33,062 bases of DNA. It comes from Planctomycetota bacterium. GTDB lineage: Bacteria; Planctomycetota; Phycisphaerae; UBA1845. This document shows, in pieces, positions 17,975 to 23,592 of this stretch (positions are counted from its first letter, which is position 1; every line of letters begins with the position of its first letter). The notes beneath the pieces are model-generated. The model worked only from the letters and a program-made list of their open reading frames with translations. It had not been told where the DNA came from and made no database searches. Both the position numbers and the translations under genes were made by a program. The stretch covers positions 1 through 33,062 of the forward strand of contig JAADIU010000098.1 in assembly GCA_013151185.1 (NCBI GenBank), read 5' to 3'.

Positions 17975-18322
17975 ACGATTTCAAAGTGACCGATAAGTGG
18001 CACCTCATTCACGCGATCGTGCCTGTGAATTTTGGCCGACGACCGCGAAGTTTACACAATGTTCCATTTCTCGGCGCGTTTGTGTGTGCTTAGGGGACTT
18101 GCCTCGAAACTCACAGCCCCAAAGCGTGCGATTCTATTCCACCCATTGACATGGCCTAGTCCAGCGCTCCAAACTCACGAGGTGGTTCACGCATCAGCAA
18201 TGGTACATGGTTATGCGGACCAAATCACCTCGCATGATTCGCTCGGCAGCTACCAAGGCCGAGCGAGCAACGTTCGTTCGTCAATTCTTTAGTTTGGTTG
18301 TTCTAATCAAGGAGACGCAGAA
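17975..18322. other. Structured spacer before the micro-gene pair
   Basis: No supported ordinary gene is present (the ORF at 18032-18292 starts with TTG and lacks a ribosome binding site). The spacer contains the stem-loops listed separately and a TTGACA at 18146 without a matching -10 at the proper spacing. The spacer is the leader region of the two small genes that follow. Confidence 0.5.
18178..18264 (+). ncRNA. Candidate structured leader or small RNA upstream of the micro-genes
   Basis: Arms CGAGGTGGTT (18178-18187) and AATCACCTCG (18223-18232) pair over 10 positions with one G-U pair. Inside, CGCAT (18190-18194) pairs with ATGCG (18213-18217), leaving an 18-base loop. A second hairpin follows directly, GCTCGGC-AGCTACCAAG-GCCGAGC (18241-18264). 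The two structures end about 45 bases before a strong ribosome binding site. They could be a cis-regulatory leader, a terminator pair or a small RNA. No known family was recognised and transcription is not shown. Confidence 0.35.
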
Positions 18323-18430
18323 ATGATGGAAGAATTGCTTTTTGGTGGCTGGTTCGAGGACGGAATTGGTGTGTTCGTCGAATGGGTCGAGAACATGATT
18401 CCTATGATTATCATTGGCATGGAAGGTTAA
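18323..18430 (+). CDS. Small hydrophobic/acidic protein, 35 residues
   Basis: This gene is too short for the ORF track. ATG at 18323 is preceded by the strong ribosome binding site AAGGAGAC, six bases away, and the frame ends with TAA at 18428-18430. The product is MMEELLFGGWFEDGIGVFVEWV followed by ENMIPMIIIGMEG. It is acidic, has no lysine or arginine, and could form an amphipathic or membrane-inserted helix. A second small gene with an almost identical ribosome binding site begins 10 bases after the stop, so the two appear to be one transcript. The match of two strong sites to two tiny frames argues against chance. I do not recognise the protein. Small membrane regulators, peptide pheromones and toxin-like peptides all fit the appearance, none of them is shown. 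Confidence 0.6.
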   Translation: MMEELLFGGWFEDGIGVFVEWVENMIPMIIIGMEG

Positions 18431-18440
18431 GGAGATACAG

Positions 18441-18560
18441 ATGCACTACTACCCACTTAGTCAAAATGAACAACGGATCGTGCATTGGAGTGGCCGGCTG
18501 ATGTTGATTGCAGCCGTCGCGGTTTCTGCCTTCCTGGGTGCGGTGTCCTGGTTCGCGTAG
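18441..18560 (+). CDS. Small single-span membrane protein, 39 residues
   Basis: ATG at 18441 is preceded by TTAAGGAGATACAG, a strong ribosome binding site that includes the stop codon of the previous small gene. The frame ends with TAG at 18558-18560. The product begins MHYYPLSQNEQRIVHWSGR and ends with the hydrophobic segment LMLIAAVAVSAFLGAVSWFA, long enough to cross a membrane once, with the polar part presumably on the cytoplasmic side. It is not in the ORF track because it is too short. The gene lies immediately downstream of the 35-residue gene and before the convergent CHASE2 kinase gene. I do not recognise the family. The shared leader and adjacent kinase could mean a regulatory link, but that is only an inference from position. 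Confidence 0.6.
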   Translation: MHYYPLSQNEQRIVHWSGRLMLIAAVAVSAFLGAVSWFA

Positions 18561-18623: not shown

Positions 18624-21050
18624 TCACGGCAGGCGCGTCTGACCGGCTGAGTCCTTTGGGAATCGGTGCAGATTCCTGAGGTACTCAACGGACAGCGCAA
18701 GAATCGCCGCTGCCCCGGTGGATGCGCCTGCAATGGTCCAATTTGCGAAATGCCTCGCCGACGGGATAAACATCGTGATCGCGCAGCCAAGCGTGATCGC
18801 AGTCATGATCCCGACGGTGGTGAGGTATGCGCGACGTGTTCGACATCCGCCGCGGCCTGCGATGAGCCGCGCGGTGAGGCAGCCGACGATGGCCATCCCG
18901 ACGATGATCGAGTACGCCCCAATGGGCAACCAGTGTCTTCGGTTCACCGAACGACTCGAAATCAGTCCGCGGATTGCATCGCCCAGGAGGTATCCGCCCG
19001 GAACGTTCCTGATAATGCCTTCATCGTACTTGACCGTGTGGAGGTCGCGCTTGACACCGGGAAATGGGCTTGGGGGTCGCAGGTCGATGCACAAAACGAT
19101 TTTACCCGCAACCAAATCCCAAAGTTCGGTTTCGGACCTGCGCAGCACTGCCTCATAGGCGATCGTTCTTGATTCCTGCGTTTGCAGTGGCGTCAGGTCA
19201 AACGTTTTTGTTGCGGGGATGTCGCCGGGGCGGCTTGACGCACGGCCGTCCCGCATCGCCGGCAATGTCTTGACTTGGATTCGGTCGATGCCTTTGATGT
19301 ATGCCTTCGTGCCTCGCTCCCGGTGTTGGACGGTGAGCGCATCGTCACCCGGATTCCAGGTTACCTCATTTCGCAGTCGCGGGTAGCACACCGCACCGAG
19401 CATCGCCAACGCAAGCGAAGGCAGGCTTTGCTCGCCGCGTCGGGTCACGATGACGAACTCACCAGGCCGCTCGACCATGTCACGCGCCATGATCAAGCCG
19501 TGATGGACGATTTCGCTGAGCGGATCGTAGATGTCCGGGCTGATTTTCGGGATGCCAGCCGCGGAATAGTCGATGGCGGCGAGGGCCACGGGGACGCCAG
19601 CTCGGTCGAGCGCCAAGATGCCTTCGACCAATTCGGGATCACCCCGCTGGCGCGATCGAAAGTAGTAGTCCCACACCACGGCTTTCGGTTTTGCCTTGGC
19701 CAAACGTCTCATGAGTCGGCCATGGACTGCCCGCCATGTACGAATCGAGCCCGTTACATCTGGAATTCCGTTCGTCCGCGCGAATTCTATGACATTTTTT
19801 GCCGTGTCATCACCAACGCCGACAAACACGAAGTCTGTGGGGCCTTGGGTGGCGCTCGACTTGAGCAATGTTGTGCGCGCGTCGGTGCTGTGGTCGTCGG
19901 AGAGTATGCCAAAGTCGATGCCGAGCAGGAACGTTCCGGAACTGATCGCAAACAGGACGCCCGCGACGATGAGCATCCAGACGGCTGTGCGCGAGCGCAG
20001 CATGATCCCGATGGCGATGCGCTGCAAGCGATAAAAAAGCGGCAACGGTTTTGTTTTGATGGCGCTTTCGTTGCAAAGGTTGGCGATGTCGTCGCCCAAC
20101 TGGCGCGCGGACGAAATTCTTCGATGCGACTCCGGTGCAAGGCAGCGCGAAATCAGCGTGGTGAGTCCGCGCGCGTCGGACACGGGCGGTTTTTTTGGCA
20201 CCTCGTGTTGGATGCGATGCAGCAGCGAGTCGCCGGCGTTCTTGCCTTCGATCGGTTCGAGGTTGTACGGGTAGTCACCGTCCGTTGCGATTTCGAAGAG
20301 CATGACCCCGAGTGCCCAGATGTCGCTGGTGTGGTCGATGCGCATCATGCCACCCCAGGATTGTTCGGGTGACATGTATTTGACGGTGCCCATGATTCGG
20401 CCAAGTTGCGTTTGCGTGCGGCGGATACGCGTGGCCCAATCGTCGGATTGAACTGCGGACAAGCCAAAATCAACCAAATGGGGTTGACCGCGATCATCGA
20501 CGAGCAGATGCCTCGGTGTTAAATCGCGATGCACGACACCCTGTTCGTGAACGGCGGCGACCACTTTGCACGCGCGTTCAAAGACGCAGAGTTTACTTTC
20601 AAGCGAGGTTGTGTTTTTGTCCAGGTACTCGTCGAGTGGAATGCCACCCAGCATTTCCATCGCCAAATAATGCGACCCACCCGAATGCCCGGAGTCGAGA
20701 TAGCGTGCTACGTTCGGGCAGTCGAGCGCCTTGAGAATTGCGATTTCGCGTTCGACGAAGCGAAGCGTTTCCTGGTCGGCAGCATGTCGAAGCACCTTGA
20801 GCGCCACCCATTGGGGGGATTTCCCAAAACGCATCGCCTGATACACAACACCGGAACTTCCGTGCCCAAGTCGTCCGCAACAAAGGTATTCCGCGACAAC
20901 GGGAAACTCGCCACCGGGCCAATGTTCGCGCACCATCTTTGACGTGCAGCCGTCGTTCGCCAACTCATCTGCGAAGCGCAAAAGTGCATCGTCATCGGAG
21001 TGACCCGACAAGAGCAATGACACAAAGCGCTGGACGTTCGCGGTGTTCAT
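18624..21050 (-). CDS. Ser/Thr protein kinase with CHASE2 sensor domain and C-terminal membrane helices
   Basis: The 808-residue protein has a cytoplasmic Hanks-type kinase domain (about 53-330): glycine loop GRLGHGSSGVVYQA, VALKVL (K85), HRD at 174-176, DFG at 194-196, and SPEQ with WGGMMRIDHTSDIWALGVMLFEI. The catalytic loop reads HRDLTPRHLL; the usual loop lysine is threonine and the metal-binding asparagine is histidine. A membrane helix (about 357-380) leads to a CHASE2-like extracytoplasmic domain (FVFVGVGDDTAKNVIEF, KPKAVVWDYYF, AGVPVALAAI). Three C-terminal helices follow (around 700-720, 733-755 and 765-790). This kinase-TM-CHASE2-3TM layout is a known planctomycete and cyanobacterial sensor design. 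It diverges from an ECF sigma gene, the frequent ECF-kinase pairing of planctomycetes. The ligand is unknown, and catalytic activity is uncertain. Confidence 0.92.
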   Translation of the reverse strand: MNTANVQRFVSLLLSGHSDDDALLRFADELANDGCTSKMVREHWPGGEFPVVAEYLCCGRLGHGSSGVVYQAMRFGKSPQWVALKVLRHAADQETLRFVEREIAILKALDCPNVARYLDSGHSGGSHYLAMEMLGGIPLDEYLDKNTTSLESKLCVFERACKVVAAVHEQGVVHRDLTPRHLLVDDRGQPHLVDFGLSAVQSDDWATRIRRTQTQLGRIMGTVKYMSPEQSWGGMMRIDHTSDIWALGVMLFEIATDGDYPYNLEPIEGKNAGDSLLHRIQHEVPKKPPVSDARGLTTLISRCLAPESHRRISSARQLGDDIANLCNESAIKTKPLPLFYRLQRIAIGIMLRSRTAVWMLIVAGVLFAISSGTFLLGIDFGILSDDHSTDARTTLLKSSATQGPTDFVFVGVGDDTAKNVIEFARTNGIPDVTGSIRTWRAVHGRLMRRLAKAKPKAVVWDYYFRSRQRGDPELVEGILALDRAGVPVALAAIDYSAAGIPKISPDIYDPLSEIVHHGLIMARDMVERPGEFVIVTRRGEQSLPSLALAMLGAVCYPRLRNEVTWNPGDDALTVQHRERGTKAYIKGIDRIQVKTLPAMRDGRASSRPGDIPATKTFDLTPLQTQESRTIAYEAVLRRSETELWDLVAGKIVLCIDLRPPSPFPGVKRDLHTVKYDEGIIRNVPGGYLLGDAIRGLISSRSVNRRHWLPIGAYSIIVGMAIVGCLTARLIAGRGGCRTRRAYLTTVGIMTAITLGCAITMFIPSARHFANWTIAGASTGAAAILALSVEYLRNLHRFPKDSAGQTRLP

Positions 21051-21287
21051 GGCTAGGGTAAGATCCGTAATGTTCGCGTGCTCGAATCACAACGTTCGTC
21101 GAACTGAAAGATTTTTGCATTCGGTAAGATTTGGATTATATGCTCTGCTCCCGCGCTGCATTGGGTCGCCAGAGGGCGCACCGCAATCAGTCATGCGTGG
21201 GGCAAGTCTTGAAAATCCGTCACCACTCTGAATGCAGTTTGGCTTGAACGCAGCACGGCTGACTGCAGTGTGGATCGTGGAATACTG
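21051..21287. promoter_or_regulatory. Divergent promoter region between the CHASE2 kinase and the ECF operon
   Basis: A shared AT-rich core at 21135-21142 offers a -10 for both directions. Leftward, the minus strand reads TATAAT (complement of ATTATA at 21135-21140). Rightward, TTGCAT (21115-21120), a 16-base spacer and TATATG (21137-21142) form a fair sigma-70 promoter. A GG...GC pattern TGGCTTGAACGCAGCA at 21240-21255 has sigma-54 spacing but only partly matches the consensus. The kinase ATG has no ribosome binding site. Confidence 0.4.
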
Positions 21288-21806
21288 ATGTCAAGCAAGC
21301 CATGGTGGACCGTCATTTCCGCGAGCGAGTTGTACGCTCTGCGCGCCCGCCTCGATCGCGTCGTAATCGATTCGTTCGGACCATCCCTCGACGCCGAGCG
21401 AGAAGACCTGGTTCAACACGCGTTGTTGGTGCTGATACGGAACAAAGAGCGCGTGTTACCGGACGATGACGGTTTGTTCCGCTATGCCCGCCGAGTGCTC
21501 CACCGTGCCGTACTCGATTGCATGAGATCACACCGCCGCGTGACCGATTATGACCGCCTGGCCAGCGCTGAAATTCCACCCAAGCAGCCTGAACCTCCTA
21601 ATTTAATGGACCGGGACGAAAAAATTCAAAAAATTCGCGATATTTTCTGCGAACTTTGCGATCTCGACCGTTTGGTATTATGGAGTTTTGTTGTTGACGG
21701 CCAATCGATCAACACGATTGCGAATCAGCTCGATGTAAATTGGCATCAGGTCGCCCAGATCATCGAGCAGGGTTTACAAACATTTCGACAGCATCTCTCC
21801 GATTAG
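21288..21806 (+). CDS. ECF-type RNA polymerase sigma factor
   Basis: The 172-residue product (from ATG 21288; the ORF track begins earlier at a GTG) has the two domains of an ECF sigma factor. Region 2 covers DLVQHALLVLIRNKERVL and FRYARRVLHRAVLDCMRSHRR, the helix that opens the -10 element. Region 4 covers FCELCDLDRLVLWSFVVDGQSINTIANQLDVNWHQVAQIIEQGLQTF, the -35-binding helix-turn-helix. There is no anti-sigma factor with a zinc motif next to it. A membrane Ser/Thr kinase lies divergently upstream, which fits planctomycete ECF groups regulated by adjacent kinases. It heads a likely operon with an unknown protein (43 bases on), a histidine kinase and a response regulator. It probably directs transcription of a regulon in response to the kinase signal, but target genes are unknown. 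Confidence 0.85.
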   Translation: MSSKPWWTVISASELYALRARLDRVVIDSFGPSLDAEREDLVQHALLVLIRNKERVLPDDDGLFRYARRVLHRAVLDCMRSHRRVTDYDRLASAEIPPKQPEPPNLMDRDEKIQKIRDIFCELCDLDRLVLWSFVVDGQSINTIANQLDVNWHQVAQIIEQGLQTFRQHLSD

Positions 21807-21848
21807 TTTCGTTTTTAGCCTTCTGGCATCGATAAATCGGGGACACAC

Positions 21849-22589
21849 ATGCGCGATCAGCACGACAACACAGGCAATTCAAAGCCAGTTCGACGGCCAC
21901 CCAGCCGGCCAAACCCAACCAGCCAGCCACAAAAGGGCCATTCCGACAGCGATGCGCTGCTTTTCGCGCTGTTCGAGTCGGCATCTTCTGGAGACGACCG
22001 GGCGTTGAGGGAGTTGATCCTGTCGAATCCTGAGTTCGCCGAACGCTATCACCGGGCAGATCCATGCGTGGCCGATCTGCGTGATGCCCTCGGCGAGGCA
22101 TCGCTCGGTACGGATGCGGCGGATTTGGCGTTCGCGGCCATCGCTGCACGAATCAAAGCCCAACTCGCCAGCGGCTCTCTCGCTCAGCCCGAGGTCGCGT
22201 CCGTGGGAGAGGAATCCCCGGAACCGGCGGGCATTCTCACCGACATGACGAGGCAGTTGTCGGCTTCACAGGCGAGAGACCTTTTTGAAAAGCTCGCACC
22301 GATGTTGGTCTACACGGCACTCAAACACCTCGATCTCCCCAGCACGCTGGACGAAGTGGATCGCGTGTCGGCGTGTTTGTGTTCCGACGACGCTGTCGCA
22401 CGCCTCCGCGCTGCGGATCATGTTCGCGATGCGCTGGTTGGTGAGTTCGCGTTGGCGCTGGGCGTCGATGCGGTGCAGGGCAAGATGGATCGCGATCAGA
22501 TGGTCCGACTGTTGGAAGAAAGCGGAACCATGGGCGATTTGGCGGCTATGGCGAACTGCATCACGTTGATCAAAACGCAGGCGGGATAA
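21849..22589 (+). CDS. Unrecognised acidic protein in the ECF operon
   Basis: The 246-residue protein has no signal peptide and no membrane helix. It begins with a basic, proline-rich tail (KPVRRPPSRPNPTSQPQKG), then an acidic helical segment (ALLFALFESASSGDDRALRELI), and continues as alternating acidic helices up to LLEESGTMGDLAAMANCITLIKTQAG. Alanine and aspartate are very frequent. No zinc-binding anti-sigma motif (HxxxCxxC) is present. Its position just downstream of the sigma factor and just upstream of a histidine kinase makes it a candidate sigma partner, phosphorylation target of the divergent kinase, or adaptor. The ATG at 21849 follows GGGGACACAC. I do not recognise a family and the role is inferred from place only. 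Confidence 0.6.
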   Translation: MRDQHDNTGNSKPVRRPPSRPNPTSQPQKGHSDSDALLFALFESASSGDDRALRELILSNPEFAERYHRADPCVADLRDALGEASLGTDAADLAFAAIAARIKAQLASGSLAQPEVASVGEESPEPAGILTDMTRQLSASQARDLFEKLAPMLVYTALKHLDLPSTLDEVDRVSACLCSDDAVARLRAADHVRDALVGEFALALGVDAVQGKMDRDQMVRLLEESGTMGDLAAMANCITLIKTQAG

Positions 22590-22620
22590 GCCCGCCGCAA
22601 GTCGAAAGGGAAGAAGATCA

Positions 22621-23592
22621 GTGGAAGCGTCCCTGCACATGCGACAGTTTTTCCGTGGAAGCGCAGCCGCTCTGCGCCGAGTGCGCCGCCGTTTCGCGTT
22701 ATCGATCGAAGTGAATCGGTGCGAAGACGGCCCACTTGCCGTTCGAGGTGTGGCAGTTCGAGAAGTGCCTGATGAAGTCGCTGCGCCCAGGTTGGAGCAT
22801 CACGACCACGGCATCGCGAATGGTAGCGCAATCGCTCGTGCTTCTGCACGAAGTATCGGTGTTGGATTGGATGCGGCTCAGTTCGCCCACGATCTTGACA
22901 ACTTGTTGATGGTGATCGCCTCGCGCACAGCCCTCGCAAGGATCGCTGCGGATCGCGGTGAGTCGTGTGCGCCGTCGCTGCTTGCGATCGAAACGGCGAC
23001 CCGTCAAGCCCAGGATCTGTCAAAACTGCTTCGGGACGGTGGAACGCGAAGCCGCGTTTCAAAAACTCCCGTAGATTTTGCCGAGACGGTTCAAGCCGCG
23101 CTGACGTCATCGCGGCCTTGGATGCCCTCGAACGTCGCCCTGGTCGAAGACATTCCACCGGACGCTGCGATCTGGATTTTGGGCAATCGTACGCAACTCC
23201 AGCGGGTAATTCACAATCTTCTGGCCAACGCCATTCAGGCAATGACGGTTGGTGGAAAGATTATCGTGTCGCTCGAAACCACTCCGGTGCGCAGCGCCAA
23301 ACCGCATCGGGGAATGGCAATGCCAATCGGTTTCGGACCGAAACGCGTGTGCCTGAACATCACCGACAACGGAGTCGGGATGGATGCCAACGCGCGGGCT
23401 CGGATATTTGAGCCAGGGTTCTCGCAAAGGTGCGAGGGTTCGGGTCGGGGTTTGGGCATGACCATCGTCGGCAATATTGTGCGGGATCACCGCGGCAGTG
23501 TTGAGGTGGAATCATCGTTGGGGCGGGGGACGCGCGTGTGCATCACCTTTCCTATTTCAGCAACGGGGCATGGGGAGAACGGCTATGCCTAA
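22621..23592 (+). CDS. Soluble sensor histidine kinase
   Basis: The 323-residue protein (GTG start, preceded by GGGAAGAAGATCA) has no membrane helix. Residues 1-75 form a basic then histidine-rich region, followed by the H-box QFAHDLDNLLMVIASR (H90), whose form (HDLDNLL) is like PAS-linked NtrB-type kinases (HDFNNLL). The ATPase domain has N-box QRVIHNLLANAIQAM, G1 ITDNGVGMDANARARI, F-box IFEPGFSQ and G2 GSGRGLGMTIV. It overlaps the response regulator gene by eight bases, so the two are translationally coupled and form a two-component pair. The sensor part is short and unrecognised, so it may read a cytoplasmic signal or be controlled by the unknown protein encoded just upstream. Cognate pairing with the downstream regulator is very likely. 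Confidence 0.9.
   Translation: MEASLHMRQFFRGSAAALRRVRRRFALSIEVNRCEDGPLAVRGVAVREVPDEVAAPRLEHHDHGIANGSAIARASARSIGVGLDAAQFAHDLDNLLMVIASRTALARIAADRGESCAPSLLAIETATRQAQDLSKLLRDGGTRSRVSKTPVDFAETVQAALTSSRPWMPSNVALVEDIPPDAAIWILGNRTQLQRVIHNLLANAIQAMTVGGKIIVSLETTPVRSAKPHRGMAMPIGFGPKRVCLNITDNGVGMDANARARIFEPGFSQRCEGSGRGLGMTIVGNIVRDHRGSVEVESSLGRGTRVCITFPISATGHGENGYA

What the first reader, a model, noticed from the sequence alone, without database searches (positions are those of the whole stretch)
18323..18560. Undescribed pair of micro-genes with matched strong ribosome binding sites
Two tiny frames (35 and 39 residues) sit in tandem, each with an almost identical strong ribosome binding site (TCAAGGAGACGCAGAA-ATG and TTAAGGAGATACAG-ATG). 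Their spacing is tight. One product is acidic and amphipathic or hydrophobic with no basic residue. The other has a single membrane span. They fall below the ORF track cutoff and would be missed by most pipelines. The strong ribosome binding sites contrast with most other genes here, which have weak or no sites. They may be a small membrane regulator, peptide signal or toxin-like pair.
Basis: partly seen in the sequence, partly recalled or inferred. Interest (0 to 1): 0.72.

Follow-up and report, generated by a model that had tools for sequence, protein, structure and literature searches.

The report
Conserved micro-protein pair beside CHASE2 kinase
Two tiny, unannotated bacterial genes turn out to be real, conserved across many planctomycete genera, and present only where one particular membrane-bound sensor kinase is present, so they are probably small partner proteins of that kinase.

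Summary
ORF1 (18323-18430, 35 aa) and ORF2 (18441-18560, 39 aa) lie in tandem with strong ribosome binding sites, and ORF2's site overlaps ORF1's stop codon. Both are genuine genes. Profiles of each were searched separately in 114 genomes of the order. They find the same genomes, and substitutions are strongly biased to synonymous changes. Its 32 orthologues occur in 29 genomes. All 29 carry the pair, with copy number matching, and none of the other 85 genomes has either. In 30 cases pair and kinase are adjacent, while the upstream flank differs between genera. In two genomes the pair sits elsewhere, yet still matches the kinase by sequence type. No library family recognises either peptide. 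I think ORF2 is a single-span membrane subunit and ORF1 an acidic, membrane-associated co-subunit, together regulating the kinase, in the manner of MgrB or SafA with PhoQ but in a different kinase class. The functional link is well supported. Direct binding, and the sign of regulation, are inferred. A toxin pair is unlikely.

The parts
18309..18314 (+). Shine-Dalgarno site (AAGGAG) of ORF1
   Evidence: sequence; anti-SD duplex -8.5 kcal/mol
18323..18430 (+). ORF1, 35 aa acidic hydrophobic micro-protein MMEELLFGGWFEDGIGVFVEWVENMIPMIIIGMEG (second ATG at 18326 is an alternative start)
   Evidence: ORF1 profile finds 31 places in 28 genomes of the order, all carrying the kinase orthologue; purifying selection
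18429..18434 (+). Shine-Dalgarno site (AAGGAG) of ORF2, overlapping the ORF1 stop codon
   Evidence: sequence; stop/SD overlap recurs, mostly as TAGGAG
18441..18560 (+). ORF2, 39 aa single-span membrane micro-protein, motif YPL[S/T]xxE...W..R then one membrane helix
   Evidence: conserved in 29 genomes; purifying selection; AlphaFold2 single helix 8-38
18624..21050 (-). partner kinase: N-terminal Ser/Thr protein kinase, TM, periplasmic CHASE2 sensor, three C-terminal TMs (808 aa), convergent with the pair
   Evidence: Pfam Pkinase 1.4e-35 and CHASE2 4.8e-07; orthologues adjacent to the pair in 30 of 32 cases; model of C-terminal half
21270..21806 (+). ECF-type sigma factor, divergent from the kinase; present in a subset of loci (type A)
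   Evidence: NCBIfam sigma70-ECF 8.3e-14; same neighbour in L061-L065, L070, L076, L152
21849..22589 (+). 246 aa protein of unknown family, following the sigma gene in type A loci
   Evidence: no Pfam or NCBIfam match; conserved in type A loci
22621..23592 (+). HATPase_c (histidine-kinase-like) protein, third gene of the type A neighbour cluster
   Evidence: Pfam HATPase_c 1.2e-22

Best explanation
The two micro-genes encode small membrane-associated partner proteins of the convergently encoded Ser/Thr kinase-CHASE2 receptor. ORF2 is a single-span membrane peptide: a short cytosolic N-terminus with a YPL[S/T]xxE helix-capping motif, a W/R-rich juxtamembrane turn, then one transmembrane helix. 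ORF1 is an acidic, hydrophobic peptide that probably lies on or in the membrane beside ORF2, in keeping with its negative charge and ORF2's basic juxtamembrane residues. They are probably translated together, because the ORF2 ribosome binding site overlaps the ORF1 stop codon. The pair most likely packs against the four transmembrane helices of the kinase and sets or tunes its signalling state. Shown here: the genes are real by conservation, arranged for coupled translation, under purifying selection, and co-inherited with this kinase alone. Inferred: membrane topology of ORF1, direct binding, and whether the effect is activating, inhibiting or needed for assembly.
For: In 114 genomes of the order the kinase-CHASE2 profile separates 32 orthologues (E <= 8.4e-114) from paralogues (E >= 2.2e-51). 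All 29 genomes with an orthologue carry the pair, and none of the other 85 does. Copy number matches in the three genomes with two kinases, G022, G029 and G046. Pair and kinase are adjacent in 30 of 32 cases, while window flanks such as GT2 and LolA-like were found only in the own genus. Two pairs lie away from the kinase, G022 (51 kb apart) and G089 (another contig), yet their ORF2 and kinase nearest neighbours agree. Distance matrices correlate: r 0.72 for ORF2 and 0.66 for ORF1, Mantel p 0.0005. Synonymous bias: gapless L061/L062, ORF1 pS 0.62 pN 0.08, ORF2 pS 0.60 pN 0.03. ORF2 is modelled as one helix with the [ST]xxE cap at its start. The kinase model has one TM helix before and three after CHASE2.
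Against: There is no direct evidence of expression, binding or an effect on kinase activity. Co-inheritance and the distance correlation are partly explained by shared ancestry and physical linkage; only the two unlinked cases and the copy-number match break this. In the window's own genus the kinase catalytic loop is altered (HRDLTPRH instead of HRDLKPRN), so catalysis there is uncertain. ORF1 is less hydrophobic than a typical membrane span in several genomes, so its location is unsure.
Confidence: 0.62

Rival explanations
1. ORF1 is a secreted or processed peptide signal whose conserved C-terminus (PLIxIGMEG) is the active part, ORF2 helps process or anchor it, and the CHASE2 domain of the kinase is its receptor.
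For: The C-terminus of ORF1 is its most conserved part while its length varies from 24 to 45 aa at the N-terminal side. CHASE2 is a sensor domain expected outside the membrane (Pfam; model) and needs a ligand.
Against: Signal peptides usually diverge between species, but this C-terminus is nearly constant across genera. No protease or exporter gene was seen as a constant neighbour.
Confidence: 0.13
2. The pair is a target or effector of the pathway (for example a membrane-acting stress peptide pair) that the kinase controls, not a regulator of the kinase.
For: Standalone + strand unit with its own upstream region; the pair can lie away from the kinase. S/T at the capping position could be a phosphorylation site.
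Against: One-to-one copy number with the kinase and adjacency in 30 of 32 cases favour a physical partner. The S/T position is N in G015 (L155), so an obligatory phosphosite there is unlikely.
Confidence: 0.15
3. Toxin-antitoxin or other selfish micro-gene pair carried along by linkage.
For: Two tiny tandem genes, one with a membrane span.
Against: Not found in any genome of the order without the kinase orthologue; no hit in PADLOC or PHROGs; no plasmid match; one copy per kinase.
Confidence: 0.04
4. The frames are not coding; the conservation reflects a regulatory RNA antisense to the 3' end of the kinase.
For: Convergent arrangement with 3' overlap of up to 46 nt in many loci.
Against: Codon-position bias, conserved start, stop and ribosome binding sites. 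In the window there is a 63 nt gap, and in two genomes the pair is unlinked. No Rfam family reaches its threshold.
Confidence: 0.02

Closest known systems
MgrB and SafA, small membrane regulators of the PhoQ sensor kinase (PMC10576120)
   Same: Very small single-span membrane proteins tied to one membrane sensor kinase; MgrB (47 aa) represses and SafA (65 aa) activates PhoQ by direct contact.
   Different: Here the partner is a Ser/Thr kinase with CHASE2, not a histidine kinase; the genes come as a pair arranged for coupled translation; no described sequence family is matched; binding is untested.
KdpF-type membrane peptides (PMC3618439)
   Same: About 30 aa hydrophobic peptide conserved with a larger membrane system.
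   Different: KdpF is co-transcribed with its transporter genes; the pair here is on the opposite strand from the kinase.
Ser/Thr kinases with CHASE2 (listed among cbSTKII kinases of cyanobacteria, PMC2176072)
   Same: Same combination of a Ser/Thr kinase with CHASE2.
   Different: No micro-protein partner is mentioned in the passages read; paralogous CHASE2 kinases in the same order have no pair.
Cytochrome b559 beta subunit (PsbF)
   Same: Weak profile resemblance of ORF2 over the membrane span (E 0.008).
   Different: ORF2 has no conserved histidine in the span to bind heme, and ORF1 matches nothing in the PDB; most likely a generic membrane helix.

Membership tests
Small membrane regulators of sensor kinases (MgrB/SafA kind; a functional class) | Under about 70 aa with one membrane span | tested here: met
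   ORF2 38-42 aa, one hydrophobic span, single helix 8-38
Small membrane regulators of sensor kinases (MgrB/SafA kind; a functional class) | Specific genetic association with one membrane kinase | tested here: met
   29 of 29 genomes with the kinase orthologue, 0 of 85 without
Small membrane regulators of sensor kinases (MgrB/SafA kind; a functional class) | Direct contact with the kinase and change of its activity | not testable with these tools
   needs pull-down, cross-linking or kinase assay
MgrB or SafA sequence families | Sequence match to a described family | tested here: not met
   no Pfam match; only far sub-threshold NCBIfam hits for the peptides, to unrelated families
Toxin-antitoxin or defence pair | Match to a defence or phage family, or spread independent of host genes | tested here: not met
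   no PADLOC or PHROGs match; within the order always with the kinase orthologue
Peptide pheromone | Secretion and processing of the peptide | not testable with these tools
   needs peptidomics of cells and medium
STPK-activated ECF sigma system (ECF43 kind), for the type A neighbour | Acidic DAED motif of sigma region 2 replaced by uncharged residues (PMC8103513) | tested here: not met
   acidic residues are kept in region 2 (REDLVQ, REDIVQ, IEDIVQ)
Cytochrome b559 (PsbF) | Axial heme histidine in the span | tested here: not met
   no conserved histidine in the ORF2 span

The most novel reading that the evidence does not exclude
Two co-translated micro-proteins are obligatory subunits of a membrane Ser/Thr kinase receptor, giving a three-component eukaryotic-like kinase sensor in Planctomycetota whose sensing depends on peptides shorter than most annotation cut-offs.
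Probability: 0.35. Interest if true: 0.78.

Novelty: new variant of a known kind. Interest (0 to 1): 0.6.

Why it matters
Many bacterial Ser/Thr kinases with outside sensor domains have no known partner or signal (general knowledge). A pair of peptides of 24-45 and 38-42 aa that follows one such kinase exactly gives a testable handle on how it is controlled. It also shows that genes too short for standard annotation can be fixed parts of signalling systems.

Tried and rejected
A genome-wide name search with the ORF2 alignment failed because no stretch was conserved enough. Weak ORF2 hits inside long open frames in other genomes (e.g. G240, G081, G691) were rejected as chance membrane helices. 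An sRNA or structured-RNA reading was rejected. A PDB fold search with the CHASE2 model gave nothing at E <= 0.001. The PsbF resemblance was rejected for lack of the heme histidine. A bipartite upstream element CT-N20/21-CGA[TC], mostly about 136-168 nt before ORF1, was found in 20 of 31 loci against 5.3 expected, but it was defined on the same sequences and is absent from the window, so it is only a lead. The consensus scan shows no convincing sigma-70 promoter upstream of the pair in the window.

Full report
What is there. ORF1 (18323-18430) and ORF2 (18441-18560) are real open frames with the stated ribosome binding sites. The ORF2 site overlaps the ORF1 stop codon (TAAGGAG), an arrangement typical of coupled translation. 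Of 31 pairs examined, 28 have a gap of 7-16 nt and often the same stop/SD overlap; only three species of one genus have 54-100 nt. Duplex energies to the anti-SD have a median of -8.5 for both genes. In the window only 2% of ATGs, and 1 of 19 other genes at the first start, reach -8.

Both are genes. A first search with the single sequences found ORF2 relatives at 1e-10 to 1e-8 in all four other species of the genus, and weaker ones across the family, with ORF1-like frames about 20 bp upstream. Extracting loci gave a consistent pair: ORF1 of 24-45 aa, mostly ending in (I/L)G[M/T/S/I]E[G/A], and ORF2 of 38-42 aa with M..YPL[S/T]xxE...RW..R followed by a membrane span. Within the genus, gapless codon comparisons show strong synonymous bias, for example L061 against L062: ORF1 pS 0.62 and pN 0.08, ORF2 pS 0.60 and pN 0.03. 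Pooled pN/pS is 0.07-0.35 for ORF1 and 0.21-0.51 for ORF2 in five groups. Pairs that needed gaps were aligned by protein, which favours low pN, so the gapless pairs are the clean test.

The partner. In the adjacent loci the next gene downstream is a roughly 800-870 aa Ser/Thr kinase with a CHASE2 domain (shorter where the contig ends), on the opposite strand, with 3' ends from 46 nt of overlap to under 100 nt apart. The window copy is 18624-21050 (Pfam Pkinase and CHASE2). A profile of its C-terminal half separates 32 orthologues in 29 genomes of the order (E <= 8.4e-114) from many paralogues (E >= 2.2e-51). An independent profile of ORF1 finds 31 places in 28 of these 29 genomes and nothing else; the missing one, G113, has ORF1 close to the contig edge and only its end could be read. 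The ORF2 profile finds the same genomes, two of them (G015, G089) with weak scores but confirmed by reading the DNA. Sampling of 298 genomes of the class, which includes members of the order, and 392 of the phylum gave no credible pair outside the order. Numbers match too: G022, G029 and G046 have two kinases and two pairs. Upstream flanks change between genera, and the window's GT2 and LolA-like neighbours were found only in its genus.

Two exceptions that strengthen the link. In G022 (contig C484) the pair and the kinase are 51 kb apart, and in G089 they are on different contigs. In both, the ORF2 nearest neighbours are the partners of the kinase's nearest neighbours: L151 with L070, L076 and L082, and L154 with L071. 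Over 30 pairs the distances correlate (r 0.72 for ORF2, 0.66 for ORF1, Mantel p 0.0005); shared ancestry contributes to this, so the value is supportive, not proof.

Anatomy. The C-terminal half of the kinase is modelled (mean pLDDT 82.7) with one long helix before the CHASE2 domain and three after it, which with an N-terminal kinase domain implies a cytosolic kinase and an outside sensor. ORF2 is modelled as one helix, residues 8-38, starting right after S7. The S/T-x-x-E motif is therefore best read as a helix-capping box. One relative has N there (L155), which fits capping better than an obligatory phosphosite. ORF1 is acidic, with 0-1 basic residues in all 31.

Two locus types. In the window's genus and in L065, L070, L076 and L152 the kinase is divergent from a small ECF sigma gene, generally followed by a 246 aa unknown protein and a HATPase protein. 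Other loci lack these, so the core unit is kinase plus pair. The sigma factors keep acidic region-2 residues, so the known phospho-switch of kinase-activated ECFs (PMC8103513) is not supported.

What is known. Neither peptide matches Pfam, PHROGs or PADLOC, and NCBIfam gives only sub-threshold hits. The nearest working analogue is MgrB and SafA with PhoQ (PMC10576120). Searches of the paper library found no description of micro-proteins with CHASE2 Ser/Thr kinases; that library is incomplete. Only two named carriers were found, both 'Planctomycetota bacterium' MAGs.

Verdict. A real, conserved and, as far as could be searched, undescribed micro-gene pair, functionally tied to one CHASE2 kinase family. 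Regulation of the kinase by membrane contact is the most likely mechanism but is inferred.

Noticed in passing
window 18624-21050 (-), L061-L064: The kinase catalytic loop is altered: HRDLTPRH in all five species of the window's genus, and HRDLKPKH in L065, L070 and L076, against HRDLKPRN in most others. The kinases with a neighbouring sigma gene that could be read may be catalytically unusual.
   Followed up: partly
window 21270-23592 (+): Conserved cluster of ECF sigma, a 246 aa protein of no known family, and a HATPase protein, divergent from the kinase in several genera.
   Followed up: partly
upstream of ORF1 in 20 of 31 loci, mostly at -136 to -168: Bipartite element CT-N20/21-CGA[TC] at roughly constant distance from ORF1, possibly an alternative-sigma promoter; not in the window.
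   Followed up: partly
window 18260-18280: Terminator-like hairpin just upstream of ORF1, close to the expected number in shuffles.
   Followed up: no
L077, L080, L087: Three species of one genus have 54-100 nt between ORF1 and ORF2, so coupling by stop/SD overlap is lost there.
   Followed up: no
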